A DNA stretch of 64,000 nucleotides, taken from assembly GCA_914767715.1 (NCBI GenBank), contig OU612072.1, positions 22,258,001-22,322,000 on the forward strand, in the 5' to 3' direction. Source of the DNA: Membranipora membranacea. Lineage: Eukaryota; Bryozoa; Gymnolaemata; Cheilostomatida; Membraniporidae. Below are positions 5,561-56,064 of this stretch, piece after piece. The notes below the pieces were generated by a model that was not told the DNA's origin, did not search any database, and was given only the letters and a program-made list of their open reading frames with translations. Numbering within the stretch: the stretch's first letter is position 1; each line of letters begins with the position of its first letter. Made by a program: the position numbers and the translations under genes.

Positions 5561-5643
5561 TCATCGTTGGTCGGCAGTCGGCAGCTTCTTCACATCAATT
5601 TTCAGCAGGCTGACCCGTTCATTGTTGATCAGTTCAACTCTCT
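5561..5643 (-). CDS. Last coding exon of the caspase-fusion gene
   Basis: It begins after cacag and ends at TGA 5563-5561. The tail reads ELINNERVSLLKIDVKKL and ends TADQR. It lies after the caspase fold and has no recognised domain. Phase 1 from the previous donor (CAAG|gtcagt) fits. If the previous exon instead reads through, the protein would end in a Gly-rich tail coded by the adjacent C-run. Confidence 0.6.
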
Positions 5644-8600
5644 CTGTGAAAGAAAAGCACAACATACTGATAATGTAAGATAAGATAATTCTCTTCTACA
5701 GAATAACTTCCATTGACATTTCATTAAACTTGATATTCTGACCCCCCCCCCCCCCCCTGTGTACCGAGAGTTGCAGAATGATATGATTTATAAACTTCTA
5801 CAAGCATCGAAGAACCTGACTGACCTTGAAACACCACCTCACTCTTAGCAGGATTCGGTGATACAGGATTGGCCAGCTCATCTGGATGAGTAGTTCTCAT
5901 ATTAACTCCAGGAGACAGATAGAGCTTCCTCTCATTAGTGAATGTACTGATGGTGACAGGAAGCTGTCCTACGCCTTCCTTAGGAGCCTCCTCTCTCACT
6001 ATGGTTTGAATCTACAACCAAACAGGATGTTTTATTATGTCAGGTAATACTTTGAGGCGGTGGATAAATAATTTTCATCAAGAGGACAATACCCTGAACC
6101 TAGTAGCAGTCTCTAATGTATTGAAAGCTGGTGGTATCTTAAACACTTGATTGGAGGTAATCTTATCTGATGAAAGAAGATTTTAACCAAGACAAAAATA
6201 TCACAATATCACAAACTATTCCCCAAAAAACAAATTTATATTGACAATGCAAAAATGTAAAAATAAATTTGGATTTTTTTCACATAATTATTTCTCGAAC
6301 TGGTATATACTGTGCCCGAGCTTAATCAGACAGCAAGTGTAAAACCAGTATCAGGTATGTGCAATAAGGAAAACAGTCTTACCCTTTGTGGAAAAGAAAC
6401 ATTTAAAACCAACAAACATACCATTTTACTGAGTTCTTCAGCGTGTTTTGATCCTGCTTGCTTGTAGAAGGTTGCGACTAAAGCACGAATGAACAAAGAT
6501 CCTTTGGTCCTGAATCTCCATGAAACATAATCTGTCAAAATTTATCATGGGATGTACAATTGAACATAGTACATGGGTTCACTGTGGAAAAAGTTGGTTG
6601 TGTTGTGCAACTTTGACATTTCATATGTTTGCCTCTAGCCTTTGAAATATGATGAAGTTGATAGGTTTTCCCTAAGTGTTGGCTCATTTGCTATGATATG
6701 ATATATCGATATTCGTGAAACTTCAAAAATCTCATACTGTGTGGGATAGAAACTATGGAAGAGTGACAAGGAATCAAATCAAGGGATTGCATTGAGTTGC
6801 GGGAGAATCCATTCTTATCGGGTAATTTTCTATGGTTAATCCATTGTTAACAACTTTTTATTTGGCTTAAAAATGAAGCAGTTACATTTATAGTTACCTG
6901 GAAAGCTTGGGTGGAATACGATAAGATCATCCATACACTGATGGCTATCATCTGGAGGTCTTTCTGTTTCTTGTTGTTGCTGCTGTGGTTGTTGTTGTTG
7001 TTGTGACGGTTGTTGTTGCTGTTGATGTTGTGGTAGCTGTTGATACTGTCGTTGCCGCGGCTCTTTTGGTCGTTGTGGGGAGGGTACTGGTGGCACTCTT
7101 TTGACTGAACTTGGTACTTGTACATCTTCTTCTGGACCGGAAGCTGTTTTGAGAAAACAAAGGTAATCAAATCCAGCCCCAAATTCTGATTTGTCTTTGT
7201 TAGCTCTGTAATATTGTCATTGAAAAATAATCAGCCTAAGACTGGTCCATGTCAAAACTGCACAAATAATGTTTTTAGGGAACAGAATGAACATGAAATA
7301 ATATTAACCAGCTGTCTTTGTTTCCACTTCATCTAGTACACATCTCTGCTGTGATTCAGGAGATGCAGTGGATCCTTCATCAGTTCCTGTCTGGATTGTC
7401 GACGAATCGTCATTCTTCATTTTTCTCACTTAAAAACAAATTTTTTTTTTACTATCTTGCTTGTGCAATTAGGATTATGCTTCCATAAAGTGATTAATAA
7501 TTAATGCACTGCGAGATTTCAGATATTCAACATTGCAATTACAGAAATCATGGCATACTTTCATTGCAAATCTCATTAATCTATTATGGATATCAATCAA
7601 CAGATCTTCACACAAAATAGATGCCAGTGTTAAAAGTGCCACACCAAAGCTTACACACCTCCTGAGCAGGCCTGAAGGATCACCATCTTAGGTTTTCCCC
7701 TCATTGCAGGAAAGTTTTGTGATGAGAGCAGTCTGTATATGTCCACTAGTTTGAGGGTTCCATCTTTGGTTGAGATTGTACCATAACCACCATGACTCAT
7801 CAACACCAGTGCAAACATTCCCAGGTTAGCATGTACAGATGTATCAGTGTCTCTATCCACATACTGTGTCTCTTTGTGTATCGCCTCAACCACCTCCTAT
7901 ATCAAGAACAAATGGAGAAGAAATATTGCATTACCATCAGTAGATGTCCCGTTTTGGTTGATTCGGTTGATTTGGTTGACTTTTTGCATAGTCTAGATTC
8001 AAATACTTTATTATGATAATTCATGAAATAGTCAGTTGATATTTTTTTCTTTTACTGTATGCAAAAAAGTTGATCGTCAAGCATTGAAGGGAGTAACCTT
8101 CAAAGGGAGGGGTCCAGTTTGGGGCTGAGATGTAGTCACGTTTTAATTTTGATTAAGTTGTGAGGTCATATATTTTGATATCGCTCTTTCAAAGAAAGAT
8201 TGCCGGCTGCAATGTTTTAAGACACCAAAATGTGGAGATAAGCCCTTGCTACAGGGTACATAAATTTACATCTCATTAGTTGTTGGATGATATGATTACC
8301 TTGGCACTCCATACTCTATTACCGCTCAGCTCGCTTACAATGAATCCAAACTGTTTGAACATTTCAACCATGTTTTTGTAGTCATACTGAGATCCTTCTC
8401 TGTCCTGTTCCTTTATGGGGAATCTGATATTGATTATGAGAGCTCTTCCTCGAGAGGCAGTCATAGTATAAACCTTAAAACGAACAGAAAATTTCAATTG
8501 TTTTTATTAATTCAATGTCCACTGATGTGGAACCATTCGCCTCAGACCAACTTGATCAAGATGCTGAACGCTTAAGAATGCCATTCAGCATTTTCAATCC

Positions 8601-11600
8601 TTACACAGACAAAAGCTTATGTCTCTGAACTCATTATGGTAGGTTATAGCATCAATCTTCAGTAGATAAGAAGACATATTATTGGGACTAATCAGTTTGT
8701 CTTAACATCACAATAACCTTTTCTTTGTGAGGTGTAGAATACAAGGTGGTCTGGAAGTTTGGCAGCATGCTGATGTGTGCTTGAGTTTCATCATTCATGA
8801 TTCTTCTGATTTCATCAGTTGATGGGTCCAACTTCTTCACATATTGAACTAGTGCTTCATGAGCAGAGTCAGAGAGTTTGAGGCCTTTTATGGAGTGAGA
8901 AAAAATATTCGTATTAATTACAATCAAGTTATGGACTTCATACTGAATATGAGCAGTGAGAATTTCCTCAAACTCTACGAGTGAAATATATTCACAACTT
9001 GTTGGATAGTAGCACAAGGGGATAATCAAAGTCATAAAGAAGATCAACCAGAAACATCATTTCACACAATTCCACCAATCTGTGATATTTCAATCAAAAA
9101 CTATTGGACTCGCAAACTATAATGTGACTCAGCTAGCAGTAAATATAATGAACACCGTGGAGAAAATAATTCAAAAATTTAATCTTACATGGTGTCTTGA
9201 GTACAGCTGGAACATCATGTTCTGATCCACATGATACAGTGTCTGCTGTCGGCTGTTGATTGCTTGATGGAGCGCATATCGCCTGGAAGTCTAACAATGC
9301 AGGGTTAGGCTTTTCACGAATGAGGCAATGGGGACAAGGAATGTCATAACCTATCTTTGTAGCTGGCCAGGCAAGTCGCGCTTCTGCTGAAAGCTTTTCA
9401 AGTAGGTTGGAGAAAGTCTTCCAACATTTCAAAATCGTTGAGATAGACCCTTCAACTCTGATGGTGACTTTTTGTGCCTCTTTCTCGTTGATAAGGTGAG
9501 TATCGAACTCAGCTGCGTCAGACCGCTTACTACTTTTCGTTTTAGCTGAGGCACCGTTTCCATAGGGGAAGACTTGATAGCTACTAGCCATGACTTGAAG
9601 AAATTTCACAGTTAGCTGATGGAAAGCGTAGTTAGGTACTTTCAACCCAACAAAGTTCAAACAGGCACCGAGCTGAATCTGAGCTGTGTGAAGAGAAAAT
9701 GTATGTTCGGGCATGAAATATGGCATCAAGTAGCAACCATCCTGATTGTTGACAACAGTCGGGCCATGCAGGAGCTTGAATTTCTTCATAAGTGCAACTG
9801 CGATTTCAAAGGGTATCTTCACAGAGTTGGACAGGCACATTTCCAGATCTCTCTTGCTAATCATACCATTTCTCAGATAGCTGCTTCCTGTAGACACATT
9901 GACAGCAGAGGGCTGTACGACTAAATCACTGATCATGGTATGATCATAGAGTGATCCTATGAGCTCTGACACAGCTTCTATATTGTGAAATATTATATCA
10001 GCTAACTCACAGTCATTTGGTGACTCCTCACCAACATCATCTTCATCTGAATCAGACTCATCATCTTCATCTGAATCAGACTCATCATCTTCATCTGAAT
10101 CAGACTCATCATCTTCATCTGAATCAGGGAAATAAACTTCATCTGAATCATCTGAATCAGACTCAGGCGCTGGATACCACAATATTTGACCTGATCGCTT
10201 CATGAAGTCGAGAACAGTCCCAGGGTGCGTCAGAGAAGAATAAATCTGGTCATATGTGAGAAAGCTGTCAGTATCTCCAGTAAAAGGCTCTAGCCACACA
10301 GACGGGATGAAGCACATAGAGTTCTTCACTCGCCTGATAAGACACTCTTCTAAACGCTTGAGGTCTTCTGAATAGTCTCCTGCATCAACAGAAAATCCTA
10401 GTGAGAATACGTTATTCGCACTGAACATAGACAGAGTTTTGCTGCCATCAGAGGATACAGCCAGGTCGCAGAATTCATTTCCATCATCAAGAAGTTCACT
10501 TGTTAACTGTTTAACAGTATTTCTAAAATCCCTGCACAGTTCCTCATAAAGCTCTTTTTTGTCCACATATTTGTCAAGGTGAGTGAATATGAGGATAGGC
10601 TCTTGTATTCTATCAGTTATCTTGATCAGGTGCGAAAGCCAATCAAAGGCCACCCTTCTGGTGGCCTCCCGCAGTCCCCTTTCTTCTCTTAGGGTCTGGA
10701 ACTCCGGCATATTCACAACAATCACTGGTACGCAATCCTTTCGCACTGTCAGGTGATACCCGTAATGGTAGACTTCGTCGCCACCAAAGTCGATCACCTT
10801 GACGCTTATTGCTTCTGATTCAGGACCTTTCAGCTGGACTTCCTGAAAACCGAAAACTTTGGTTTTTTGAACTTTAGGATCATCTGAAGTTAGAGGCTTG
10901 AAGTTCTGCTGCATGGCACAGAGAAGAGACGACTTTCCTGCCTCCTTTCTACCAACGAGGGCGATTGACGAAAGTGTTATTTGGACTTTACCTCTTTCCA
11001 AGTCATTGTAGTAGGCTTTAATGGCACCCAAACCTCCTTCACACACAACATAGGGAGGCTCGATAAGGCTGTAGCATTCATCACATTCGAGCTGTGTTAC
11101 GTTCAGCACAAAGGGATGAAGACGGCAGAGAGAAGAGTTATCACTGAGGTTCAGGTCCCTCATGGAGACTAGTTCACCGATCCATTCAGGTAGTTGTTTG
11201 ATGCTGTTGCTCTGCAAGTCAAGCCATGTTAGCTTTCTCATGTTTCTCATACTGAAAAAAAGGTAAAGAGGATGCTACAATTGACCTGCTTCAGATCTAA
11301 TATCTTGCTATTAATATATTCACGACACACTTTCTTTCAGCTTGCCAACAGCTGTTTTGAGAGTGGTAGACATCATGACATGTTCAAACTAGTAATGCGG
11401 CTTAGACAATGTATGAAGTTCACTTTCTATCCTGGCATCACAGTGCTGACAAAAAAACATAGGATAATACAACAAAGTGCCAATCAAACCTTCACCTGCT
11501 TTATGTGTTGCAATAGATAGAATATGGATAGGATAATATAAACTTGATGTGGCCCACTGACACAAAGCTATTCTATCTTTGCATAAGGATATGCCCACAA

Positions 11601-47600: not shown

Positions 47601-50600
47601 GCTAGCCGACTATCCAGTGAAGGGAAAAGGGAAAACTTCTCAAGACAGGCAAACTGCATAAAACTCAATCTAGATGCAGTTTGGGAGCATCCAATGAAAA
47701 ATTCGTAAAGCATGATGAATTATCTACCAGAGGAAATCAACTTTAGTAATCAGTGACTATGCTGAATGAGTGAAACAAATGAGCACCAACTAACAACACC
47801 AAAACAGGATGGCTGAGCCAACCGATTACCAAATCATTGACTTTTTTAATCATGTTCAAAATCTTTCGAAAAAATTGTTCGAACTTCAGAACTTCCAGAT
47901 AGCCAGAAAATTGCCAGAGTACGACCACTGCATAAAAAAGGTGATAAATTTGACTGTAACAACTATCGGCCGATATCGATATTAACTGTAAGTTGCAGAA
48001 AAAGTATTAGCTATCCAACTCCGATTCTATTTGGAAAATTCGAATATTTTAATTGACAGCCAGTTTGGATTCCGTGAAAAACGGAACACAACTTCTGCTA
48101 TATCTAGACTAATGGAATACCTGTACGACAGTTTTAATAACAGTACAATTACACAAGGAATATTTTTAGACTTCAGCAAGGCTTTTAATACCATCAACCA
48201 TGATATTCTAATCAAAAAATTGCCTTTCTATAATTTTACAAATGATGCATGTGACTTGTTAAAATCTTATTTAGAAAACAGAAAATAGTTTGTCAAAATC
48301 AACGATCATTCCAGTACAATGAAAAAGGTCGATATCGGAGTTCCTCAGGGATGTGTATTAGGTCCAATTTTATTTTTAATATTTATCAATGATTTGGTAA
48401 TATCTGCGCCAATGTTTAAATATATTCTCTTTGCCGACGACACAAATATATTTTCCAATGATCCTGAAATTTTAAAATCAAATGTTCAAAAAATTGAACA
48501 ATGGTGCTTGAATAATAAATTGATTTTAAACTATCCAAAAACATTTCAGGTAATTTTTAAATCCCAAAATAAGCAAATCTTAGATCCTGAACAGTCCCAA
48601 ATTAAACTTGATAATCAGGCTTTAGAGACAAAAAATAGCACCAAATTTTTCGGCATTCACCTTGATGAGAGCATTATTTTTAAAACCCATATTTTAGAAG
48701 TTTGTCGGAAATTGAACTTCATCCTATTTTTAATGCGTAGTGTACGACCATATTTCAATATTCCTACGATGATCAATTTGTATTGCGCATTCTTTTGTCC
48801 ACATTTGATTTATGGTATTGAGTTTCATGGTCATGCCACAAATTGTCATCTTAATCACATCTATTTACTTCAAAAATCAGCTCTCCGTGTCATACTCCAA
48901 ATCCGCCCACGTGGTCATGTGACCTCTCTCTCTCATTATGTTTGTCAAGCAATTCAACGCATGACTAGTTCACTAAATTAGAGAACCCTGAGAAATCATT
49001 TGACAGTTTTAAGTGATGACACGACTCCCAATCAATTTAATATTTATATTCATGTTTGTTTTGCTGCTTGTGGGTTTCAGTGATTTTTTAAGATAAACTT
49101 TCATATACCTTGACCTAAATGATGATAACAGTAGGATAAAGATAAGTATACTGAGGTATCAGCCAATGAGTGTCATTACCTTTCAGGTATCTTAGTCAGC
49201 TTACAGTATCCCAGGCCCAGTATCTCCAGATTAGTTAGTGCTAACAATGTCTGACCCAGCTGATCATCTCTACTTAGATTGTTATTGAATAAGTTTAGGT
49301 CCTTCAGCGATGTCATCTTAGCAATGCTGCAGAAAAAGAAATATAATCTTCACATTATTCCCTGTTTTATACAATTATTTTTCGGATAGCCCAGAGTTAT
49401 TCTGATTTCTTCGCCTCACAGGAACTCCCTAAAATGCAGTGTATTCTAAGATCAAGTTTGATCCATTATTCTCTTGTATTAAGTTTGAACTCATAGGAGA
49501 GCAACTCTGAATGCAGGAAAATGGACCAAACTTGGTAATTCGTCTTACATAGTCAAATAAGGGGCTTTGGCTGTCTCGACAACAAAAATACATAAAACAG
49601 GTGTTTAAAAAAAAATTAAGGCTGTAATGTTTTCTTTTTTTTGCAAGATTTGATGATGTATCAACACGACAAAAGAGGTCATAATAAGTAATGTTCTGCT
49701 TTTAAGGTGCTGTCTGTACAGTAGTTAAATCCATTTTATCAACCAAAGGCAGAAATGTTGTATAGCCACTATAGGTTTCTCAACGGAGCAATGCAAAGAA
49801 ACTGTTGCATTTTAGCATTCACTACCCAACACTAAAACAGGGAAATAATAAAACCTAAATAATTTTCAGCATTTTTGATGCCTGTCTTGACAAAAATAAA
49901 GAAACACTTTTTTTTTGGCAAGTAAACGAATGACTAGATCTTAAAAAAGTAGAGAACCCTGAGAAATCATTGGACAGTTTTAAGTGATAAGATGAGTCCC
50001 AATCAAATTAACATTCTGACATACATACATACATACATACATACATACATACATTGCTGCATTGGGGTTTCAGCACCTTTAGCAAACCTTATATACCTCT
50101 CATATACCTTGACCTGAATGATGAAATCAAAAGGGTAAAGATGAATAAACTAAATAAACTGAGGTTTTGGCCGATGGGTGTCATTACCTGTCAGGTATAT
50201 TAGTCAGCTCACAGCCTTCCAGGTTCAGTTTCTCCAGATTAGTGAGTGCTGACAATGTCTGACTCAGCTGATCATCTCCACTTAGATTGTTATTGCATAA
50301 GTTTAGGTACTTCAGCGATGTCATCTTTGCAATGCTGCAGACAAAGAAAATATAATCTTCACATTATTCCCTGTTTTATACAATTATTTTTCAGATAGCC
50401 CAGACCTACTCTGAATTCTTCGCCTCACAGGAACTCCCTATAATGCAGTGTATTCTAAGATCAAGTTTGATTCATTATTCTTTTGTATCAAGTTTGAACT
50501 CATAGGAGAGCAACTCTGAATGCAGGAAAATGGATCAAACTTGGTAATTCGTCTTACAGAGTTAATTAAGGGGCTTTGGCTGTCTCGACAACAAAAATAC

Positions 50601-53600
50601 ATAAAACAGGTGTTTACAAAAAAGTTAAGGCTGTAATGTTTTCTTTTCTTTTGCAAGATTTGATGATGTATCAACACGACAAAAAAAGGTCATAATAAGT
50701 AATGTTCTTCTTTTCAGGGGCTGTCTGTACAGTAGTTAAATCCATTTTATCAACCAAAGACAGAAATGTTGTATAGCTACTATAGGTTTCTCAACAGAGC
50801 ATTGCAAAAAAAACTGTTGCATTTTAGCATTCACTACCGAACACTAAAACAGGGAAATAAAAAAACCTAAATGATTTTCAGCATATATGATGACTGTCTT
50901 TGACAAAAATTTAGAAACAATTTTTATTTGTTGGGCAAGTACACGCATGACTAAATCTAAGAAAAATTAGAGAACCCTGGGAAATCATTGGACAGTTTTA
51001 AGTGATAAGATGACTCCCAATCAGTTTAACATTCTGACATACGTTTTTTTGCTACATTCGGGTTTCAGTGCCTTTAGCAAACCTTATATACCTCTCATAT
51101 ACCTTGACCTGAATGATGAAATCAAAAGGGTAAATATTAATAAACTAAATAAACTGAGGTTTTGGCCGATGGGTGTCATTACCTGTCAGGTATCTTAGTC
51201 AGCCTACAGAGTCTCAGGTCCAGTTTCTCCAGATTAGTGACTGCTGACAATGTCTGACCCAGCTGATCATCTCTACTTAGATTGTTATTGCATAAGTTTA
51301 GGTCCTTCAGCGAGTTCATCTTTGCAATGCTGCAGACAAAGAAATGTAATCTTCACATTATTCCAAGTTTTATACAATTATTTTTCGGATAGCCCAGAGT
51401 TACTCTGATTTCTTCGCCTCACAGGAACTCCCTAAAATGCAGTGTATTCTAAGATCAAGTTTGATCCATAATTGTCTTGTATTAAGTTTGAAATCATAGG
51501 AGAGCAACTCTGAATGCAGGAAAATGGACCAAACTTGGTAATTCGTCTTACAGAGTTAAATAAGGGGCTTCGGCTGTCTCGACAACAAAAATACATAAAA
51601 CAGGTGTTTACAAAAAAATTAAGGCTGTAATGTTTTCTTTTTTTTTGCAAGATTTGATGATATATCAACACGACAAAAAAGGTTATAATAAGTTATGTTC
51701 TTCTTTAGGTGCTGTCTGTACACTTGTTAAATCCATTTTATCAACCTAAGACAGAAATGTTGTATAGCTACTATAGGTTTCTCAACAGAGCAATGCAAAT
51801 AAACTGTTGCATTTTAGCATTCACTACCCAACACTAAAACAGGGAAATAAAAAAACCTAAATAATTTTCAGCATATATGATGACTGTCTTTGACAAAAAT
51901 TTAGAAAGACTTTTTATTTGTTGGGCAATTAAACGCATGACTAAATCTAAAAAAAGTAGAGAACCCTGAGAAATCATTGGACAGTTTTAAGTGATAAGAT
52001 GACTCCCAATCAATTTAACATTCTGACATACGTTTTTTGCTGCATTGGGGTTTCAGTGCCTTTAGCAAACCTTATATACTTCTCATATACCTTGACCTGA
52101 ATGATGAAATCAAAAGGGTAAAGATGAATAAACTAAATAAACTGAGGCTTTGGCCGATGGGTGTCATTACCTGTCAGATATCTTAGTCAGCCTACAGTAT
52201 TCCAGGTTCAGTATCTCCAGATTAGTTAGTGCTGACAATGTCTGACCCAGCTGATCATCTCTACTTAGTTTGTTATCGTATAAGTTTAGCTGCTTCAGCG
52301 ATGTCATCTTAGCGATGCTGCAGACAAAGAAATATAATCTTCACATTATTCCCAGTTTTATACAATCACTTTTCGGATAGCCCATAAAATAAGTGGCCTT
52401 GGCTGCCTAGACAACAAAAATAGATAAATAATGATCGTCTAGATATTAATTTAGGATGTCATTTTTTGATGATTTGCAAATTTTGATGATGTACAAAAAC
52501 AAACAAAGTTTGTATAGCTATCAAAGATTTCCCAGCAGCGCAATGCATAAAAACTTTGGCATTTTAGCATTCACTACCCAACACTAAAACAGGGAAATGA
52601 AAAAACCTAAATAAATTTCAGCATAAATGATGACTGTCTTTGACAAAAATTTAGAAACATTTTTCTTTGTTGGGCAAGTAAACGCATGACTAAATCTAAA
52701 AAAAGTAGAGAACACTGAGAAATCATCGGACAGTTTTAAGTGATAAGAAGACTCCCAATCAATTTAACATTCTGATATACGTTTTTTTTGCTGCATTTGG
52801 GTTTCAGTGCCTTTAGCAAACCTTATATACCTCTCATATACCTCGACCTGAATGATGAAATCAAAAGGGTAAAGATGAATAAACTAAATAAACTGAGGTT
52901 TTGGCCGATGGGTGTCATTACCTGTCAGGTATCTTAGTCAGCTCACAGTGGCTCAGGTCCAGTGTCTCCAGATTATTTAGTGCTGACAATGTCTGACCCA
53001 GCTGATCATCTCTACTTAGTTTGTTATCCATTAGGGACAGCTGCTTCAGCGATGTCATCTTAGCAATGCTACAGACAAAGAAATATAATCTTCACATTAT
53101 TCCTAGTTTTATACAATTATTTTTCGGATAGCCCAGAGTTACTCTGATTTCTTTGCCTCACAGGAACTCCCTAAAATGCAGTGTATTCTAAGATCAAGTT
53201 TGATCCATTATTCTCTGGTATTAAAGTTGAACTCATAGGAGAGCGACTCTGAATGCAGGAAAATGGACCAAACTTGGTAATTCGTCTTACAGAGTTAAAT
53301 AAGGGGCTTTGGCGGCCTACACAACATTAATACATAAATAATGACCGTCTAGAAATTAATTAAGGCTGTGATGTTTTGGTGATTTGCAAATTTCGATGAT
53401 GTACAAAAACAAACAAAGTTTGTATAGCTATCAAAGATTTCCCAGCAGCGCAATGCATAAAAACTTTTGCATATTACCGTTCAGTCTGGGTTTATCCATT
53501 TGTCAAGAGAGAACAACTCAACTGTTACAGGAGTTGCTCAATTTGGTTATATTGGTCAGCTTATTTAATTTGCATCACACTGGCTTATTTTTGTCATAAT

Positions 53601-56064
53601 TTGAAACATGCTGGAATTCAATGTATTTAGGTTTGTAGGGTTTTCAAGCATGGTGAGCAAGAATATGAAGGTTTTTTATGGAATCAATTGGCTGCTGCCG
53701 AGCTATAGCAGCATTTTGCATGAGATCAAGAAAAGCTCAAATGCTTAGCAAACAGACGAAAACACAAGTCATGGGGTAATAAACCCTCAAGAAACTGAGT
53801 AATGCAATGCAAATTGTTGCAATTGATCCGCTGACTGATGGTAGCATTTGACGTGACATCATGAGAAACTCAAATACTTCACAAACAGACAAATACCCCA
53901 GTAATGAGGTGAAGACCTCCCAGGGAACAGAATACAGCGTTGAAATTCGTCGTAACTGATAGTATGGAATAAATGGAGTACATTTTGATATATCTACTGT
54001 TTTATTTCATTCATATTTACCTTTTCAGATACACAAATTAAATTAAATTAAATTAGTCAGCAGAATATAAGGTAGTGCCCACGCTTATGCAAAATAAGCC
54101 AATCATATAAAGAATCAAACAAATAGTAGTCTGAGAAAATCTGTTCAGCTGTTCAGCTGTTCAGTCTGTTCAGCCTGTTCAGCAATTTACAGTTACAGGT
54201 AAGTTATGCCATTAGCTTTATAGGCTCAGTTTATAATTTTACTGATATTGTTATATACAACATTAAGACAACTTAAATAGACCACACAGAATATGTACCA
54301 TTGTTAGTTTAATAGGAGGTTACAGATGGTCTGTATTATATAATATTAAAAGTCATTAGTATATAATGTGATGACATGGTAATCTAACATCATGCTTATA
54401 TTAATGATATATTTACCTGTCAGGCATCTTAGTCAGATTACAGTCCCGCAGAGTCAGAGATACCAGATCTGCAGTTAGTGTGGATAGACACTGATTCAGC
54501 TCATCACCTTCACACTGGCTGCTAACATATAGATGCTTCAGTGATGTCATCTCTGATAATCTTAAACATACCAATACAGATATACATACTTCAAGTATGC
54601 CAATCGCATTAGAGCCTAAAATATAACCTCACATCAATTTTTTACCTTTGGAGAACGGTGATTAACATGGTTTGATCAAACCTCAGCATGCAAACTCGGT
54701 ACTGATACTCACAGCGAAGTCAGCATTATTCTGAAGTGGGTTTATGTGATAAATGATTTTGGATCTAAAATTAAAATCACTTTGATAAAAACTGAGCTTA
54801 CTAACCTCAGACTTTTAAGGCTACTTCCATGTATCCGTGGGAGCGTCAGGCATTTCACTGATTTAAATAGCCTCTCTGATAACTCTGCAGGTGTGTCATC
54901 TCTAAAGTTTAAAGCTATCTGACCAGCTGAAGCTGTCTCTCTCTCCAGCTCTACTAGAGTCAGCTCTCTATAGCTAAAAAGTAGCCCAACGTTTTGTATC
55001 CAGACATCAGGATCATCCCAGTTACTGTCACCCTGCTCCTCCCACTCTACCCTGTATCCTGTAATAAGATGAAACAAAATAGAAATGGTCATGAATGAAC
55101 CTCTATAAGGATTATTATTATGTTTTAAGTGTAAATTTTCATCATTTATGATCCAACTGCTGTTCAATTTTTTACATTTTGAACAAATACTACTTGCATT
55201 ATACACACAGATCATGAGTGAGTGGTCTCATGCCATCCAGGTTATCATAATCAGTTGCTGAGGAGAAGATTTTGGTTAAATCAATTTTCTCATGATGCAG
55301 CACAGGTGATAACCAAAATTTATTTTAATTGGGAGTTGTGTACTCATGTTGTATCAAAAATCAGAAACGCGTCAACCAAAAACTCTCTCTATATTTATTT
55401 ATTCGTTTAAAGAGGTTTGAGGCAGTTGACTAAGTGTTTACAATAACCGGACATGAAAGTTGAAACAAAAAGACCAGGATGACTGTTTGAACCATTTCTT
55501 CATGCCACTATCCTCCCAGTATCATCTCTCTATCAATTCTATGATACTACAAGCTCATGTCTCCACAGTAAAGCTCCTCAAAGTTTGGTTTAGATTAACT
55601 CGATAAATTATGTCAGTGATACAGTCACAGATCCACAGAAATTTTTTTTTTAGCACAGACACTAATCATATTTGCAAACTAGGCCCATGCTGGACATGAC
55701 ATGACAAGACATGACCTTGAAAAAGCATGCCAAGTGAAAAGTGAAATGTTGGCATGCTAATTAGCACCATCAATTCAATCCGTTTTGGGGATGGTGTGAT
55801 AGGTTAGGCATATTTCAAGGTTGTTTGTTTCAGGCCCAGCACTATCAGCTTTATTAATCTCCAGGAGAAGATTTTGCTCAAGACGAGTCTCGTCAAGGCT
55901 CAACAATGTTGTAAGGTTTTTTATCTATAATTTAGACAGTAGAGAATACTTGAATTCAAATTAGAAAATTTGGTAACATGTTAAATCGCTCATATCTCTC
56001 TAGCGTTTTTTCAGAACTCACTTTTTTGGTTGCTCTCATTTTCATTTTCTCTGGCAGGATCCAT
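5561..56064 (-). CDS. LRR-Roc-COR-caspase fusion gene (whole gene, 22 coding exons)
   Basis: Assembled by hand from splice sites, the exons (joined from 56064 down to 5561) give one frame of 5,151 nt, predicted 1,716 residues. Order: start exon 56064-56022; N-terminal exon 55058-54806; ten LRR exons from 54560 to 28696; LRR plus Roc-COR exon 11251-9189; linker 8884-8718; caspase p20 exons 8473-8300 and 7896-7655; inter-subunit linkers 7424-7309 and 7143-6898 (the latter with the p10 start); p10 exons 6531-6422 and 6011-5825; last exon 5643-5561. All junction phases agree. By family knowledge, Roc-COR is a dimerising GTPase module and caspases cut after Asp. A combined sensor, switch and protease in cell death or immunity is inferred. 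No CARD, DED, signal peptide or membrane segment is seen. Whether transcripts join all exons is untested. Confidence 0.75.
5825..6011 (-). CDS. Caspase p10, C-terminal part
   Basis: The exon starts IQTIVREEAP and includes GQLPVTISTFTNERKLYLSPG. This corresponds to the final strands of the caspase p10 subunit (family pattern: a polar stretch, then P-x-x-x-T-L-x-K-x-L-Y-F-x-P). About 35 residues beyond YLSPG are Pro/Ser/Asn-rich and exceed a usual caspase C-terminus. Confidence 0.85.
6422..6531 (-). CDS. Caspase p10, substrate-pocket exon
   Basis: It reads YVSWRFRTKGSLFIRALVA followed by a helix ending EELSKM. The SWR motif carries the p10 arginine that shapes the S1 and S3 pockets in caspases, and GSLFIRAL matches the usual GSWFIQAL. 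It is joined in frame to FHPSFPD upstream, which replaces the usual F-x-x-x-x-x-x-P-G-Y. Donor ATG|gtatgt. Confidence 0.9.
6898..7143 (-). CDS. Caspase inter-subunit linker (poly-Q) and start of p10
   Basis: The first part is Pro/Arg-rich (VPPVPSPQRP). A long Gln tract follows, then DDSHQCMDDLIVFHPSFP, which is the first strand of p10. The correct one of three open frames is fixed by this strand and by the phases of both neighbours. Linkers between p20 and p10 are normally the cleavage site; candidate Asp residues sit in the PDD and MDD segments. Confidence 0.85.
6971..7040. repeat. CAA/CAG (Gln) codon tract
   Basis: A run of mixed CAA and CAG codons on the - strand codes for most of the Gln stretch in the caspase linker. 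The opposite strand and the other frames are also open, which yields spurious ORFs. Confidence 0.9.
7309..7424 (-). CDS. Caspase inter-subunit linker exon
   Basis: It encodes KMKNDDSSTIQTGTDEGS and onward to a segment ending EVETKTA, directly after the catalytic QACSGG. The Asp and Glu content is typical of caspase processing linkers. Two acceptors are possible (7424 or 7428). The first pairs with the strong donor gtaagc at 7654; the second with gtgtgt at 7656. Confidence 0.75.
7655..7896 (-). CDS. Caspase p20, catalytic exon
   Basis: It contains both catalytic residues: His in LVLMSHGGYGTI and Cys in MVILQACSGG. The stretch between them (STKDGTLKLVDIYRLL, then NFPAMRGKPK) has the usual spacing of caspase p20. 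The active-site pentapeptide is QACSG rather than QACRG. It starts at GAG after gatatag, phase 0, continuing from the exon at 8473-8300. Confidence 0.93.
8300..8473 (-). CDS. Caspase p20, N-terminal exon
   Basis: It reads YTMTASRGRALIINIRF, then REGSQYDYKNMVEMFKQFGF. This is the p20 start: the RGxALIIN strand (its Arg lines the S1 pocket), the R-x-G-S-x-x-D signature, and the L/M-x-x-x-F-x-x-x-G-F helix. Acceptor tttaag, donor AAG|gtaatc, both phase 0. Confidence 0.92.
8718..8884 (-). CDS. Linker exon between Roc-COR and caspase
   Basis: It encodes LKLSDSAHEALVQYVKKL and continues to STPHKEK. It begins after a pyrimidine-rich acceptor (ttttttctcac...aaag) in the phase left by the Roc-COR exon and ends in the phase required by the p20 exon. 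It is therefore the physical evidence for fusion. I do not recognise a death-fold domain in it. Confidence 0.75.
9189..11251 (-). CDS. C-terminal LRRs plus Roc-COR GTPase exon
   Basis: Residues 1-65 of the exon are LRRs (LTWLDLQSNSIKQLPEWIG). The Roc GTPase follows: P-loop GRKEAGKSS (100-108), DFGGDE (154-159) for the DxxG switch, and THLD (223-226) for the guanine-specificity motif. A COR region follows (SVWLEPF at 317, GQILWY at 354-359, YLMPYFMPEH near 507), interrupted by an acidic repeat at about 365-405. The C-terminal part holds CPHCLIREKPNP. Roc and COR always occur together; COR mediates dimerisation. The start base T completes AG|T from the last LRR exon. Donor CCAT|gtaaga. Nearest known layouts are MFHAS1- and DAPK-like Roco proteins. 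Confidence 0.92.
10034..10130. repeat. 24-bp coding minisatellite (acidic Ser/Asp/Glu repeat)
   Basis: Three to four copies of a 24-bp unit on the - strand encode SDSDEDDE repeats within the COR region. It is likely a flexible acidic loop. Copy number may vary between individuals. Confidence 0.9.
12578..13114. mobile_element. Foldback MITE-like element
   Basis: Inner arms 12687-12739 and 12925-12977 are near-identical reverse complements (53 nt). Outer ends near 12578-12616 and 13080-13114 are also reverse complements (core CCATACAAGAC). The sequences between outer and inner arms do not pair well. No ORF is present. Confidence 0.7.
13285..13345 (-). mobile_element. tRNA-derived SINE fragment
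   Basis: Read on the - strand, it has a B-box-like GGTCAAATCCC flanked by CGCGGGATTCC. No convincing A box or cloverleaf is seen, so this is only a possible SINE relic. Confidence 0.3.
14340..16085 (+). mobile_element. Truncated APE-type LINE (ORF1 plus start of endonuclease)
   Basis: Broken ORF1 pieces (14357-14886) are followed by a 231-residue ORF1-like frame (15213-15908). Then comes the start of an endonuclease domain (AHLNIRGLAGKLDEV, near 15885), which breaks off near 16085. Several stops and frameshifts mark it as dead. It lies antisense in the intron of the caspase-fusion gene. Confidence 0.7.
15213..15908 (+). pseudogene. LINE ORF1 (gag-like) remnant
   Basis: The Lys/Pro/Thr-rich N-terminal part is followed by a folded region (VVSIQKTSQAFTGF, VAMLKGVPLDVID) similar to nucleic-acid-binding ORF1 proteins of Jockey/I-like LINEs. 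No zinc knuckle follows; the frame instead runs into the endonuclease start. Confidence 0.55.
16420..18050. mobile_element. Long-TIR DNA element, no transposase
   Basis: Sequence at about 16420-16640 reappears inverted at about 17800-18050. Shared blocks include TGCAGGTATTT, CATTAAAAT, CAACCGCAAACACAT and the ACACACTCAG stretch. The arms are diverged. Internal direct repeats begin CCATGAC and contain TCTGGTTGTGC (16135-16180 and 16312-16350). A G-run lies near 17679-17690. Confidence 0.55.
18060..19000 (+). mobile_element. BEL/Pao retrotransposon relic
   Basis: A gag zinc-finger segment (CCIHPETKHSLIDCKRF, then VCHFCFRCLSKH; 18066-18374) is followed by a broken reverse-transcriptase region with the Pao-type order LRWREQQVALVGD, then RDLDSRW and YVDDMVYS near 18680. 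Stops and frameshifts are frequent and no LTRs are seen. Confidence 0.65.
19320..20190 (+). mobile_element. Ty1/copia integrase-region relic
   Basis: Frames in order show the pre-integrase motif (WHIDLGHNMNYEDIVKL), an integrase start (LRVHSDIRGPLG, FVDEYSS), the core LHTDNGGEYTS with HSPYQNGKTERF, and the downstream copia segment HTFDARCTYNIKPYKHQLDS. Frames are broken at about 19661, 19851 and 19980. It is a different class from the BEL/Pao piece just upstream. Confidence 0.7.
20200..21170. other. Intron sequence without recognised genes
   Basis: There is a pair of similar segments near 20437-20490 and 20570-20600 containing GGTTGCAACCTC or its complement. I see nothing else that can be supported. 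Confidence 0.5.
21190..21303 (-). pseudogene. Decayed LRR cassette exon
   Basis: After a ctgtag acceptor the - strand reads IAEMTSLRKLYLHGNNLSRD, as in the functional LRR exons. The second LRR is then lost and the frame hits a stop. Flanking sequence (21301-21900) resembles the intron of the 1-kb array units, including the attacct-ttcac remnant near 21969. It is probably an eleventh cassette that has decayed. Confidence 0.7.
22001..22170. repeat. Imperfect long inverted repeat (about 62-nt arms)
   Basis: Bases 22001-22062 pair with 22108-22170 with about six mismatches around a 45-nt loop. The core ACGCCATCACTA is present in both arms. It is a hairpin or a small foldback element. Confidence 0.8.
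22425..22535 (-). mobile_element. tRNA-derived SINE
   Basis: On the - strand an A-box-like GGCTCAGCTGGATAAG is followed about 20 nt later by a B-box-like GGTTAAAATCC. This is the internal promoter layout of tRNA genes. The rest does not fold as an intact tRNA, which suggests a SINE head. Confidence 0.55.
22540..27770. other. Intron sequence, AT-rich, no supported gene
   Basis: It holds G- or C-runs (about 23007-23016 and 24816-24827), a pair of diverged direct repeats beginning GTATGTCCTG (about 24491 and 24850), short tandem copies of TTTTATTAGC near 26457-26515, and a dispersed repeat at 23588-23630 that recurs at 61211-61250. The stretch 25100-25640 is less AT-rich and may be an old transposon, but I cannot name it. 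Confidence 0.5.
28696..28842 (-). CDS. LRR cassette exon 10 (147 nt)
   Basis: It encodes two LRRs: ISKMVSLKELNVSYNNLS and LTRLEKLDMSDCHLSELP. Phase 2 at both ends; acceptor gcag, donor GG|gtatgt. It is the last cassette before the 17.4-kb intron and the Roc-COR exon. It is nearly identical to the exon at 41223-41369 and clearly different from the cassettes of the main array. Confidence 0.88.
28985..29940 (-). mobile_element. LINE fragment (reverse-transcriptase part), dead
   Basis: On the - strand near 29100-28985 a frame contains SQFAYKTHIGTV, typical of the region before the RT palm. The rest (to 29940) matches the other copies at 39000-40500, 41455-42480 and 47110-47790. An open frame on the + strand (29480-29761) is a shadow that recurs in these copies. 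Confidence 0.55.
29950..32980. other. Intron sequence with degenerate repeats
   Basis: From about 31910 to 32130 there are about three poor copies of a roughly 90-bp unit containing CCAGTGCAGC. No coding signal is convincing. Open frames at 30299-30574 and 31928-32299 lack any recognisable motif. Confidence 0.45.
32991..33371. repeat. 34-bp minisatellite, about ten copies
   Basis: The core GAGTACGACGACTCTATCTG is followed by AGGGGGAAGGTAAC. The first three copies are diverged and the rest nearly identical. It is CpG-rich compared with its AT-rich surroundings and lies in an intron of the caspase-fusion gene. Confidence 0.95.
34124..34231. repeat. 108-bp target-site duplication, left copy
   Basis: Identical by eye to 38875-38982; both start GTATTGACC and end CATTAATAAT. 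The copies bracket the R2-type element exactly. Confidence 0.9.
34235..34626. repeat. 392-bp terminal direct repeat (3' end of the R2-type element)
   Basis: Matches 38483-38874 base for base as far as I compared. It begins AGATACAACATACAGTGG and ends CCCCTCGTGC. Confidence 0.9.
35023..38304 (-). CDS. R2-type retrotransposon polyprotein (reverse transcriptase and restriction-like endonuclease)
   Basis: A 1,093-residue frame without stops, from ATG 38304 (the frame is open to 38355). In order: an N-terminal C-x-C...H...C finger (WTCVCQRGFK, then HRTKKGC; about 44-67); a basic region; reverse transcriptase (about 320-620) with SAPGINGISYKLYKK, FRPISLLN, LDLANAYGSVPH, GIPMGCAISPLLF and FMDD at 557-560; a C-terminal CCHC knuckle (CAECSAKGTLRHILSNC); and a restriction-like endonuclease core (NQRPDLIVW, then LMELTVPWEE and HERKL). 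It would copy its RNA at a nicked target. FMDD replaces the usual F/YADD, with the two catalytic Asp kept. It belongs to the RLE-encoding group (R2, R4, NeSL, Hero-like); the exact clade is not set. Confidence 0.9.
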   Translation of the reverse strand: MGNPPLATSSYMEKCPQGLPGNEGEDERPTGTRLTVITNSEMPWTCVCQRGFKTERGMKIHRTKKGCEVVLENRSVDNSAPKTDGTLPQVENHSGQTTNSQTPTEHHGSGCERQEVEWPKMSSVKTWRELDEYAVVALNSALTGSGEKKAKQLPAILFSICEEKFGLVAKRGGTQCTKIPNRRQYEKGKLRTQQRALRERMRNCAESERHGLSVLLNDVKERIRRLARAEALRKKRKLKRKNLNNFMKNPYGFAKKLFEQSKSGELKASQAEVEAHLAKVYGNKSEVNTDIAGLKRPTSPGFSFEMGDIKLGEVAHVVTKARAKSAPGINGISYKLYKKCPGILEILTKVLNQIWKSGKIPDEWCCANGVYIPKEDKAEDLGQFRPISLLNVEGKIFFSVLAKRLTDYLMNNGFIDPSVQKAGIPGSPGCLEHVSMIWSAIKSAKQAKSNLEVIWLDLANAYGSVPHSIIDLALSHFWVPDRLRVMVERYYKKFKMRFTTKNFTTSWQELAVGIPMGCAISPLLFVMVMEIVIRNSQGSVNGIQVANNQILPPMRAFMDDITIISPDKAQVVASIDRLHELIERCAMRFKPSKSRSLSLCKGKPVPNTYFIGTERIPTLAEQPVKSLGRWYSLPITDRFRGNEVKKQLITGLDAIEKCGLSGKYKAWILNFALMPRILWPLTVYDIPLTPVERMEQMINKHMRKWLGVPRSFNTNALYASSFTLSLPMKSLVEEYKTSKARLDMMLNESPDQVIRECAPTLDTGKKWSVTETVRDAKSRLEISEIVGAVTTARHGIGWEANRWFSKESPKVRREMVVDEVRKMEEERRQTQAVGQAQQGRWTCWESVEQRQLKWTELWSMEPQRISFLVGAAYDQLPTPANLERWNLTENSKCAECSAKGTLRHILSNCQQSLGRYTYRHNQVLKVLCKYVTEKCEYANAGGEAREKILRKKGLMNSGEWQVRCDLTEQLSMPQHIVITNQRPDLIVWSDKEKALILMELTVPWEENLSYAHERKLTRYEDLVTQCQDKGWNCELFAVEVGCRGFMARSATKFLTRVGLSGRALKQATKSIVHEAESASAWIWQQHCVKTKAK
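38374..38458. repeat. 19-bp tandem repeat, about 4.5 copies
   Basis: The unit is AGCAGTCAGCTGTCTTTCC on the + strand. It lies in the 5' leader of the R2-type element between the 3'-end duplicate and the ORF. Confidence 0.9.
38483..38874. repeat. 392-bp terminal direct repeat (upstream copy)
   Basis: A copy of the element's 3' end placed before its 5' leader. It ends abruptly at CTCGTGC, where the right target duplication begins. Confidence 0.9.
38875..38982. repeat. 108-bp target-site duplication, right copy
   Basis: Partner of 34124-34231. Confidence 0.9.
39000..40500 (-). mobile_element. LINE fragment with reverse-transcriptase motifs, dead
   Basis: On the - strand, right to left: QTERL...DVDF segments (shared by all copies), a degraded QFAYK-type segment near 39600, LDLLEAFH near 39500, KLEGYNFNPHTLPLISK and NRLQCLKYGNE (39468-39350), APQGTKLGPI in another frame near 39310, and KYAEDTMFYTW near 39240. 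This is the order of a non-LTR RT palm with a decayed YADD. Frameshifts are many. Confidence 0.65.
41223..41369 (-). CDS. LRR cassette exon 9 (147 nt)
   Basis: Two LRRs: ISKMVSLKELNVGRNNLS and LTRLEKLNMSGCVLVELP. Phase 2-2, donor GG|gtatgt. It differs from exon 10 mainly at the exposed positions of the LRR strands (GR for SY, SGCVLV for SDCHLS), where ligand-facing residues would sit. Confidence 0.88.
41455..42480 (-). mobile_element. LINE fragment, dead (third copy)
   Basis: Contains SQFAYKTHIGTVDASIKQL on the - strand (41605-41402). The rest matches 28985-29940. It is part of the duplicated segment, so it moved with the LRR exon rather than inserting on its own. Confidence 0.6.
43844..44229. 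mobile_element. hAT-type MITE carrying a tRNA-like sequence
   Basis: 386 bp. The left end CAGTGGCGTATATT matches the right end read inverted, CAGGGGCGTATATT. It is flanked by a perfect 8-bp duplication TATCAAAC (43836-43843 and 44230-44237), the size made by hAT transposases; CAGTGGCG-type ends are also usual for hAT. It has no transposase ORF. A tRNA-like segment lies at 43876-43968. Confidence 0.9.
43876..43968 (+). other. tRNA-like sequence inside the MITE
   Basis: TCCGTGA and TCACGGA can form a 7-bp acceptor stem. The D arm GCTC...GAGC lies in an A box (TAGCTCAGTATGTAGAGC). An anticodon-loop-like CTTATAA and a B box (GGTTTGAATCC) follow. The T stem and anticodon stem are poor, so a working tRNA is unlikely. 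The anticodon would be UAU (Ile) if read as such. Confidence 0.65.
45644..45790 (-). CDS. LRR cassette exon 8 (147 nt)
   Basis: Two LRRs: IAKMTSLKDLNLFNNNLS and LTNLEKLDLRGCELTKIPE. Phase 2-2, acceptor gcag, donor AG|gtaatg. Confidence 0.9.
46610..46756 (-). CDS. LRR cassette exon 7 (147 nt)
   Basis: Two LRRs: IAKMNSLKDLNLCNNNLS and LTNLEILNLGYCQLTKIPE. Phase 2-2. The acceptor is ttcag|A, while most array exons have ctgcag|C. Confidence 0.9.
47110..47790 (-). mobile_element. LINE fragment, dead (fourth copy)
   Basis: Matches 39820-40480 closely, including the shared - strand segment WKSSDDVDFPTSNLHVRWD. It sits with the LINE at 47800-48980 between LRR exons 7 and 6. Confidence 0.6.
47800..48980 (+). 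mobile_element. APE-type LINE, reverse-transcriptase part
   Basis: Shares its first 65 bp (AACCGATTACCAAATCATTG...) with the LINE at 42480. RT order: ILIDSQFGFREKRNTTSAI, GIFLDFSKAFNTINHDILI, GVPQGCVLGPILFLIFIND, YILFADDTNIFS, and the thumb region to ALRVILQIRPRG (48031-48981). One stop at 48286 splits the frame. It is better preserved than the 42.5-kb copy. FADD is intact. Confidence 0.85.
49180..49326 (-). CDS. LRR cassette exon 6 (147 nt)
   Basis: Two LRRs: IAKMTSLKDLNLFNNNLS and LTNLEILGLGYCKLTKIPE. Phase 2-2, donor AG|gtaatg. Confidence 0.9.
50027..50053. repeat. (CATA)n microsatellite
   Basis: About six to seven ACAT units in the intron between cassette exons. Other array units carry a single ACATACG at this spot, so it expanded in this copy only. 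Confidence 0.9.
50188..50334 (-). CDS. LRR cassette exon 5 (147 nt)
   Basis: Two LRRs: IAKMTSLKYLNLCNNNLS and LTNLEKLNLEGCELTNIPD. Phase 2-2, donor AG|gtaatg. Confidence 0.9.
51183..51329 (-). CDS. LRR cassette exon 4 (147 nt)
   Basis: Two LRRs: IAKMNSLKDLNLCNNNLS and VTNLEKLDLRLCRLTKIPD. Phase 2-2, donor AG|gtaatg. Confidence 0.9.
52171..52317 (-). CDS. LRR cassette exon 3 (147 nt)
   Basis: Two LRRs: IAKMTSLKQLNLYDNKLS and LTNLEILNLEYCRLTKISD. Phase 2-2. The usual Pro before the donor is Ser here. Confidence 0.9.
52922..53068 (-). CDS. LRR cassette exon 2 (147 nt)
   Basis: Two LRRs: IAKMTSLKQLSLMDNKLS and LNNLETLDLSHCELTKIPD. Phase 2-2, acceptor ctgtag, donor AG|gtaatg. It is the upstream end of the 1-kb array. 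Confidence 0.9.
54417..54560 (-). CDS. LRR cassette exon 1 (144 nt)
   Basis: Two LRRs: LSEMTSLKHLYVSSQCEG and LTADLVSLTLRDCNLTKMPD. Phase 2-2 like the others but 3 nt shorter and the most diverged in sequence. It lies outside the 1-kb array. It is probably the founder or the N-terminal capping repeat. Confidence 0.85.
54806..55058 (-). CDS. N-terminal exon of the caspase-fusion gene
   Basis: It encodes YRVEWEEQGDSNWDDPDVW, then LFSYRELTLVELERETAS and ends with an LRR-like CLTLPRIHGSSLKSLR. No known domain is recognised; the acidic Trp-rich start is distinctive. Acceptor ttacag, donor AG|gttagt. Phases fit both neighbours (1 in, 2 out). Confidence 0.75.

What the first reader, a model, noticed from the sequence alone, without database searches (positions are those of the whole stretch)
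5561..56064. One gene joins an LRR array, a Roc-COR GTPase and a full caspase
The splice phases of 22 exons on the - strand agree from a start ATG to a stop and give 1,716 residues. Roc motifs (GRKEAGKSS, DFGGDE, THLD) and caspase motifs (SHG, QACSG, SWR) are all present. Roco proteins with kinase or death domains are known; a caspase as the effector would make a self-contained receptor-switch-protease, resembling in logic the NLR-type immune receptors. The key junction is exon 8884-8718, which fits both neighbours in phase and has good splice sites. Novelty is not established here.
Basis: partly seen in the sequence, partly recalled or inferred. Interest (0 to 1): 0.92.

Follow-up and report, generated by a model that had tools for sequence, protein, structure and literature searches.

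The report
Bryozoan LRR-GTPase-caspase receptor gene family
A colonial sea animal carries a gene, and dozens of relatives of it, whose predicted protein joins a sensor array, a GTP-driven switch and a cell-killing protease in one chain, like an all-in-one immune receptor.

Summary
The gene is real in sequence. On the minus strand, 21 in-phase exons (56064-5561) encode 1,736 residues: LRRs, Roc-COR and a caspase with His/Cys, p20 and p10. The genome fits Membranipora membranacea, chromosome 8.

The Roc-COR/caspase junction is supported by paralogs. In 24 of 24 Roc-COR exons examined the exon ends at a conserved Pro-Cys with a GT donor; a matching second exon was found in 21 of 24; caspase exons follow in 23 of 24, partly in the last. 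About 48 loci show Roc-COR followed by caspase. Amino-acid change between the LRR exons concentrates on the presumed ligand face (p=0.0001).

Best reading: an intracellular receptor-switch-protease that works like an NLR but is not one. LRR-Roc-COR-caspase is already reported in bacteria (PMC8195603, passage) and LRR-exon-shuffling ROCOs in brown algae (PMC11378527, passages). My limited searches showed no animal report. No transcript was at hand; RNA-seq ERR6464929 would decide.

The parts
56022..56064 (-). exon 1, predicted start ATG and 14 codons
   Evidence: in frame with exon 2; start not tested by transcripts
54806..55058 (-). exon 2, N-terminal region of unknown kind
   Evidence: phase and AG/GT fit; no domain found by Pfam in the 588-residue N-terminal part beyond LRR families and weak hits below cut-off
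54417..54560 (-). exon 3, first LRR exon (144 nt, more divergent)
52922..53068 (-). LRR exon, 147 nt, phase 2
52171..52317 (-). LRR exon, 147 nt, phase 2
51183..51329 (-). LRR exon, 147 nt, phase 2
50188..50334 (-). LRR exon, 147 nt, phase 2
49180..49326 (-). LRR exon, 147 nt, phase 2
46610..46756 (-). LRR exon, 147 nt, phase 2
45644..45790 (-). LRR exon, 147 nt, phase 2
41223..41369 (-). LRR exon, 147 nt, second subtype
   Evidence: same subtype lies upstream of paralog L031 (L034)
28696..28842 (-). LRR exon, 147 nt, second subtype
9189..11251 (-). large exon: last LRRs, Roc GTPase, COR, C-x-x-C region; ends with T|GTAAGA donor
   Evidence: Pfam Roc sub-threshold (23.5 bits, cut-off 27) in this copy, 24 of 24 family exons at E<=0.01; AlphaFold model matches LRRK1, LRRK2, CtRoco
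8718..8884 (-). junction exon, phase 1 in and 0 out
   Evidence: homologous exon start found in 21 of 24 loci; 166 of 167 bases identical in L009
8300..8473 (-). caspase p20, first exon (VYTM...RGRALIINI)
7659..7896 (-). caspase p20, second exon with catalytic His (SHG) and Cys (QACSG)
7309..7428 (-). linker exon between p20 and p10
6898..7203 (-). Gln-rich linker exon leading into p10 (tandem AGAG acceptor)
6422..6531 (-). caspase p10 exon with SWR
5825..6011 (-). caspase p10 end
5561..5643 (-). last exon and stop codon

Best explanation
The window holds one member of a large family of bryozoan genes, each encoding a single protein, probably cytoplasmic: LRR sensor, Roc-COR GTP switch, short linker, then a metazoan-type caspase at the C-terminus. 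Proposed action: the LRR horseshoe binds a foreign or altered ligand on its concave face; this changes the Roc nucleotide state and the COR-mediated dimer; the tethered caspase units are brought together (or released), process themselves between p20 and p10, and start cell death or inflammatory cleavage. Shown by sequence: domain order, intact GTPase and caspase motifs in this copy, conservation of the fused exon structure in the sampled family members, and excess amino-acid change on the LRR strand positions of this gene. Inferred: transcription as one mRNA, ligand binding, GTP control of the protease, immune role.
Against: No transcript or protein evidence. In this copy the Roc match is below Pfam's cut-off and the junction exon has a weaker donor than L009 and L031. 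Three of 24 loci (L017, L021, L024) gave no exon-2 match. 35 of 69 Roc hits were unpaired; I looked at only nine of them, so caspases in the other 26 are unseen. In the three divergent loci scanned, the p20 half stays below the Pfam cut-off and only the p10 half passes. Two of 7 caspase pieces had no Roc exon (L032, L033), so standalone caspases probably exist in this genome. The selection signal comes from 7 exons of one gene that are not independent of each other. No ligand, expression or infection data.
Confidence: 0.75

Rival explanations
1. Two neighbouring genes: an LRR-Roc-COR gene followed by a caspase gene, duplicated together as a gene pair.
For: Tandem caspases without a Roc exon in the fetched piece exist (L032, L033). 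No transcript was seen. An in-frame stop follows 2 to 68 codons after the donor in each locus, so an unspliced Roc-COR protein could be made.
Against: The end of the Roc-COR exon is conserved as a donor, not as a stop, in 24 of 24 loci, and the read-through lengths differ. The complementary second exon begins with the other part of the same Cys codon in 21 of 24. In 4 of 4 divergent loci there is no Met upstream of the caspase core in its open frame. In the five loci where the first p20 exon was located, a conserved Tyr precedes its Met within the exon.
Confidence: 0.06
2. Fused gene as described, but mainly for self/non-self recognition between colonies (allorecognition) rather than defence against microbes.
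For: The sequenced specimen is a colony (PMC10290214, passages); PMC8195603 (passage) names bryozoans among animals with allo-incompatibility in a list of uses of programmed cell death; large multi-locus family and diversified LRR face suit either role.
Against: No polymorphism or fusion data were examined; the same features fit a pathogen receptor.
Confidence: 0.3
3. This copy is a decaying member of the family: intact in frame, but poorly spliced or silent.
For: Junction donor GTTATT versus GTAATT in L009 and L031; a 12.4-kb intron (41222-28843) holding a retroelement frame at 35023-38367; a truncated LRR exon copy at 21303.
Against: No stop or frameshift in 1,736 codons; most exons and introns of the C-terminal cassette are 95-99% identical to L009, as by recent gene conversion, with frames kept.
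Confidence: 0.2
4. The LRR/Roc-COR part uses the caspase only as a scaffold: a catalytically dead or regulatory caspase.
For: Some family members have divergent caspases (QAC followed by Q, and no SWR found; L016, L017, L021, L026).
Against: In the window copy the His and Cys, and the Arg and Gln aligned with the S1 pocket residues of solved caspases (their role is recalled), are present.
Confidence: 0.12

Closest known systems
Bacterial LRR-AP-GTPase (Roc)-COR proteins with C-terminal effectors including caspase (Kaur et al. 2021, PMC8195603; passages read)
   Same: Same order: rapidly evolving LRRs, AP-GTPase, COR, effector at the C-terminus; caspase is among at least 24 C-terminal domains reported; multiple paralogs per genome
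   Different: Here in an animal, intron-rich, with an animal-type p20/p10 caspase, and in the 24 loci sampled always a caspase; common origin was not tested
Brown algal LRR-ROC-COR genes with exon shuffling (Teng et al. 2024, PMC11378527; passages read)
   Same: LRR exons of constant length in one phase, many copies, positively selected sites on the concave face, LRR-ROC-COR core
   Different: 72-nt single-LRR exons versus 147-nt two-LRR exons here; three of 111 genes have a C-terminal peptidase domain IPR009003 (trypsin-like, from my knowledge), not a caspase
LRRK1/LRRK2 and DAPK1 (animal Roco proteins; review PMC6337361, passages); MFHAS1/MASL1 (PMC4104024, passages)
   Same: Roc-COR tandem, LRR before it in LRRK; structure match over the exon
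   Different: Effector is a kinase or death domain or absent; the review PMC6337361 has no occurrence of caspase
TIR-ROC-COR genes of Aplysia (PMC9334734; passages)
   Same: A lophotrochozoan with genes that join ROC and COR to an immune signalling domain
   Different: TIR instead of caspase; two TLR-like genes with ROC and COR and one TIR protein with COR are named
NLR immune receptors and caspase-recruiting inflammasomes (from knowledge)
   Same: Sensor repeats, nucleotide switch, protease output
   Different: NLRs use a STAND ATPase (NACHT/NB-ARC) and recruit the caspase through an adaptor; here the switch is a Ras-like GTPase and the protease is built in

Membership tests
Roco (ROC-COR) family | Roc GTPase domain with G motifs | tested here: met
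   GRKEAGKS, DFGGD, THLD in the window copy; Pfam Roc 24 of 24 exons at E<=0.01, though 23.5 bits against a cut-off of 27 in this copy
Roco (ROC-COR) family | COR domain directly after Roc | tested here: met
   COR-A in 12 of 24; AlphaFold model matches Roc-COR of LRRK2, LRRK1 and CtRoco. By sequence alone COR is weak in the window copy: COR-B 15 bits, cut-off 27
Roco (ROC-COR) family | GTP binding and hydrolysis, dimerisation by COR | not testable with these tools
   needs protein
Caspase (Peptidase C14, animal type) | Catalytic His and Cys, p20 followed by p10 | tested here: met
   SHG, QACSG, SWR; Pfam 111.4 bits spanning profile 1-229 of 233
Caspase (Peptidase C14, animal type) | Cleavage after Asp and activation by dimerisation or processing | not testable with these tools
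   needs protein
NLR (NACHT/NB-ARC LRR receptors) | STAND ATPase switch domain | tested here: not met
   no NACHT or NB-ARC family in the Pfam lists (E<=1) for any of the three parts scanned; the switch is Roc
Bacterial LRR-AP-GTPase-COR-effector systems | LRR, AP-GTPase, COR and C-terminal effector in one chain | tested here: met
   order of domains in the gene model; description from PMC8195603 passage; one mRNA not shown
Bacterial LRR-AP-GTPase-COR-effector systems | common descent with the bacterial proteins | not tested
Brown-algal-type exon-shuffling LRR ROCO | in-phase LRR exons with selected concave-face sites | tested here: met
   nine exons of 147 nt, phase 2; on seven of them, by pairwise counts, not by a codon model on a tree
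Brown-algal-type exon-shuffling LRR ROCO | alternative splicing of LRR exons | not testable with these tools
   no transcripts at hand

The most novel reading that the evidence does not exclude
Bryozoans have independently built an NLR-equivalent repertoire on a Roco switch: dozens of single-chain LRR-Roc-COR-caspase receptors whose LRR exons are duplicated in phase and diversified on the ligand face, and whose effector cassettes are exchanged by gene conversion, serving as the main intracellular immune or colony allorecognition system.
Probability: 0.45. Interest if true: 0.92.

Novelty: new variant of a known kind. Interest (0 to 1): 0.8.

Why it matters
If the protein works as its parts suggest, sensing, switching and killing sit in one molecule. 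That would make it a test bed for how a Roco GTPase state is passed to an attached enzyme, an open question for LRRK2, with a protease read-out instead of a kinase. It would also place in an animal an architecture that I found described only in bacteria, with an LRR diversification scheme like that of brown algae, in a colonial phylum whose immune and allorecognition receptors are, to my knowledge, little known.

Tried and rejected
Two-gene reading: weighed and put at low probability. First impression that a C3 group of Roc genes lacks a caspase: wrong; L016, L021 and L026 have divergent caspases found by Pfam, and their relative L017 shows the same SHG and QAC segments (not scanned by Pfam). 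A profile of the whole junction exon matched only 6 of 24 loci strongly, four of them its own seeds or near-copies; a profile of its first 23 residues, seeded with 7 loci, matched 21. Of the 14 non-seeds, L009, L012 and L014 are close copies of seeds and L030 is a close copy of L023. One search gave candidates by rule only. One search showed that most L009 cassette introns are nearly as conserved as the exons, so codon statistics there say little about coding.

Counting. The 69 Roc hits are hand-picked from the 148: I kept those with open frames of 204 residues or more and left out four of 200-276 residues that match the Roc model end to end with high scores, which I took for ordinary small GTPases. 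The Roc exon of the window itself is not in that list. Both lists are lower bounds by the tool's own note. The 34 pairs are pairs of Pfam hits by position; 11 of them were fetched and seen. The tally of about 48 loci is 34, plus 8 complete and 1 partial (L022) among the Roc-fetched loci that one search had not paired, plus 5 caspase-fetched, plus the window: 48 and one partial. The donor position was chosen as the last Pro-Cys or Pro-Val whose second codon ends in GT; the untrimmed tails are. The LRR test used 7 of the 10 LRR exons before the Roc exon; I left out the two of the second subtype and the first one. The exposed positions were chosen from the LxxLxLxxN pattern, which is recalled. 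The motif meanings (P-loop, switch II, THLD, S1 pocket) are recalled.

Not achieved. Protein database search is switched off in these sessions and was not sent. Whole-genome protein counts (junction exon, p20 exon, N-terminal exon 2, Roc-COR exon) did not complete. Paper searches and readings 59-61, 75 failed; later ones worked. No animal proteome could be searched, so absence elsewhere in animals is untested. That I found no animal report rests on the listed rows of searches (10 of 238, 20 of 1,223, 20 of 67 and 15 of 94 papers) and the passages; subscription papers were not seen.

Full report
What the sequence shows. The window is G000:C8:22258001-22322000 of a 339,339,785-base genome in 18 contigs. 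The lengths of the ten large contigs that I saw agree with the chromosome table of the Membranipora membranacea assembly (PMC10290214, passages read; contig lengths), so the window is most likely chromosome 8 of that bryozoan; the paper counts 21 scaffolds, the copy here 18. On the minus strand I rebuilt the gene from the bases: 21 exons from 56064 to 5561, all internal borders AG/GT, all phases compatible, one open frame of 1,736 residues.

Is it one gene? No transcripts were available, so I used paralogs. Twenty 10-kb pieces at other long Roc exons (L009-L028) all carry caspase exons downstream on the same strand: by tblastn with the window caspase in 16, of which L022 shows only the first p20 exon; by Pfam in three divergent loci scanned (L016, L021, L026; the p10 half passes the cut-off, the p20 half does not); and in their relative L017 by its SHG and QAC segments. 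Five pieces around caspases that one search left unpaired, fetched, gave three with a Roc-COR exon upstream (L029, L030, L031) and two without (L032, L033); two further ones, L036 and L037, both had it. By position, 34 of 69 selected Roc hits have a C14 hit within 9 kb downstream on the same strand, none on the other strand, and none has one upstream. The other 35 had none in the capped lists; nine of these were fetched, and all nine have caspase exons, L022 partly.

The junction itself is conserved. In the window and 23 paralogs (L009-L031) the Roc-COR exon ends at the same Pro-Cys point, where the Cys codon is split by a GT donor (24 of 24; strict T|GTRAG 23 of 24, against 19 per 16,178 codons inside these exons). 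After it the frames run on for 2 to 68 codons without common length, as expected for intron. A second exon that starts with the rest of the Cys codon and usually the pattern C-x-x-[LI]-[TS] was found in 21 of 24 loci, with scores of 8.8 to 36.5, against a best score of 3.1 among 3,130 candidates from the opposite strand of the same sources; 7 of the 21 were seeds and four others are close copies. L017, L021 and L024 gave none. The first p20 exon starts with [VI]-Y-x-M in the same phase 0 in the five loci where the pattern was found; the Tyr before the Met argues against that Met being a start. In L016, L017, L021 and L026 no Met precedes the caspase core in its open frame.

How the family evolves. 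L009 and the window are 75% identical in the second part of the Roc-COR exon, mostly 95-99% identical in exons and introns from the junction intron to the intron after 6422 (one short gapped intron 86%), then 85% in exon 6011-5825 and 94% in the last exon: a recent gene-conversion or recombination tract covering the caspase cassette. The LRR array is made of 147-nt exons in one phase, so copies can be added or lost without breaking frame; LRR exons of the second subtype occur upstream of paralog L031 (L034). Among the seven most similar LRR exons, ten strand positions that face the concave side in the LxxLxLxxN pattern have pN 0.301 and pS 0.015, while the other 38 codons have pN 0.061 and pS 0.088; flanking introns differ by 0.09 to 0.13. 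By minimal counts there are 17 amino-acid and 0 synonymous changes at the ten codons and 13 and 6 at the rest (Fisher p 0.014); placing changes at random codons reaches this with p=0.000115. The exons are not independent, so this is good but not conclusive evidence for diversifying selection on a binding face.

Mechanism. The simplest account is a cytoplasmic receptor: ligand on the LRRs, nucleotide-dependent change in Roc-COR, proximity activation of the attached caspase, cell death or inflammatory cleavage. The order of parts is shown; every functional step is inferred. Pathogen sensing and colony allorecognition are both open; PMC8195603 (passage) mentions bryozoans among animals with allo-incompatibility.

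Known or new. The architecture is not new to biology: Kaur et al. 2021 (PMC8195603, passages read) describe bacterial LRR-AP-GTPase-COR proteins with at least 24 C-terminal domains, caspase among them. Exon-shuffling LRR-ROC-COR genes with selected concave sites are described in brown algae (PMC11378527, passages). The Roco review PMC6337361 has no occurrence of caspase, and Aplysia has TIR-ROC-COR genes (PMC9334734, passages). The greater hornwrack genome paper PMC13326412 has no occurrence of Roco, LRR or caspase. The listed rows of my searches showed no report of an animal Roco with a caspase, but they are a part of the papers matched, the library is open-access only, and no animal protein database could be searched. 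I therefore call it a new variant of a known kind.

Noticed in passing
window 35023-38367 (-): A 1,114-residue open reverse-transcriptase frame (RVT_1 84 bits, zf-RVT below cut-off) lies inside the intron between LRR exons 41223 and 28842.
   Followed up: partly
window 42793-43410, 44202-44615 and 48289-48981 (+): Further endonuclease- and reverse-transcriptase-like fragments on the opposite strand between LRR exons; identified by eye only.
   Followed up: no
window 21303-21200 (-): A truncated extra LRR exon with an acceptor but no usable donor seen before a stop, possibly a relic of exon duplication.
   Followed up: partly
window 10160-10035 (-): A four-fold Glu/Ser/Asp-rich repeat inside the Roc-COR exon of this copy; none of the other 23 aligned exons has a comparable stretch.
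   Followed up: no
L012 3534-5779: This paralog seems to carry two caspase domains, a divergent one followed by an ordinary one.
   Followed up: partly
L032 and L033: Tandem caspase genes about 2-3 kb apart without a Roc exon in the fetched piece; others of the 145 C14 matches in this genome may be of this kind.
   Followed up: partly
L016, L017, L021, L026: A group on contig C3 with divergent caspases: QACQ instead of QACxG and no SWR found.
   Followed up: partly
L019, L027, L028: Open segments between the second exon and p20 with motifs such as DGYDYLVPATPE or EDGGGYLSPS, which recall tyrosine-based signalling motifs.
   Followed up: no
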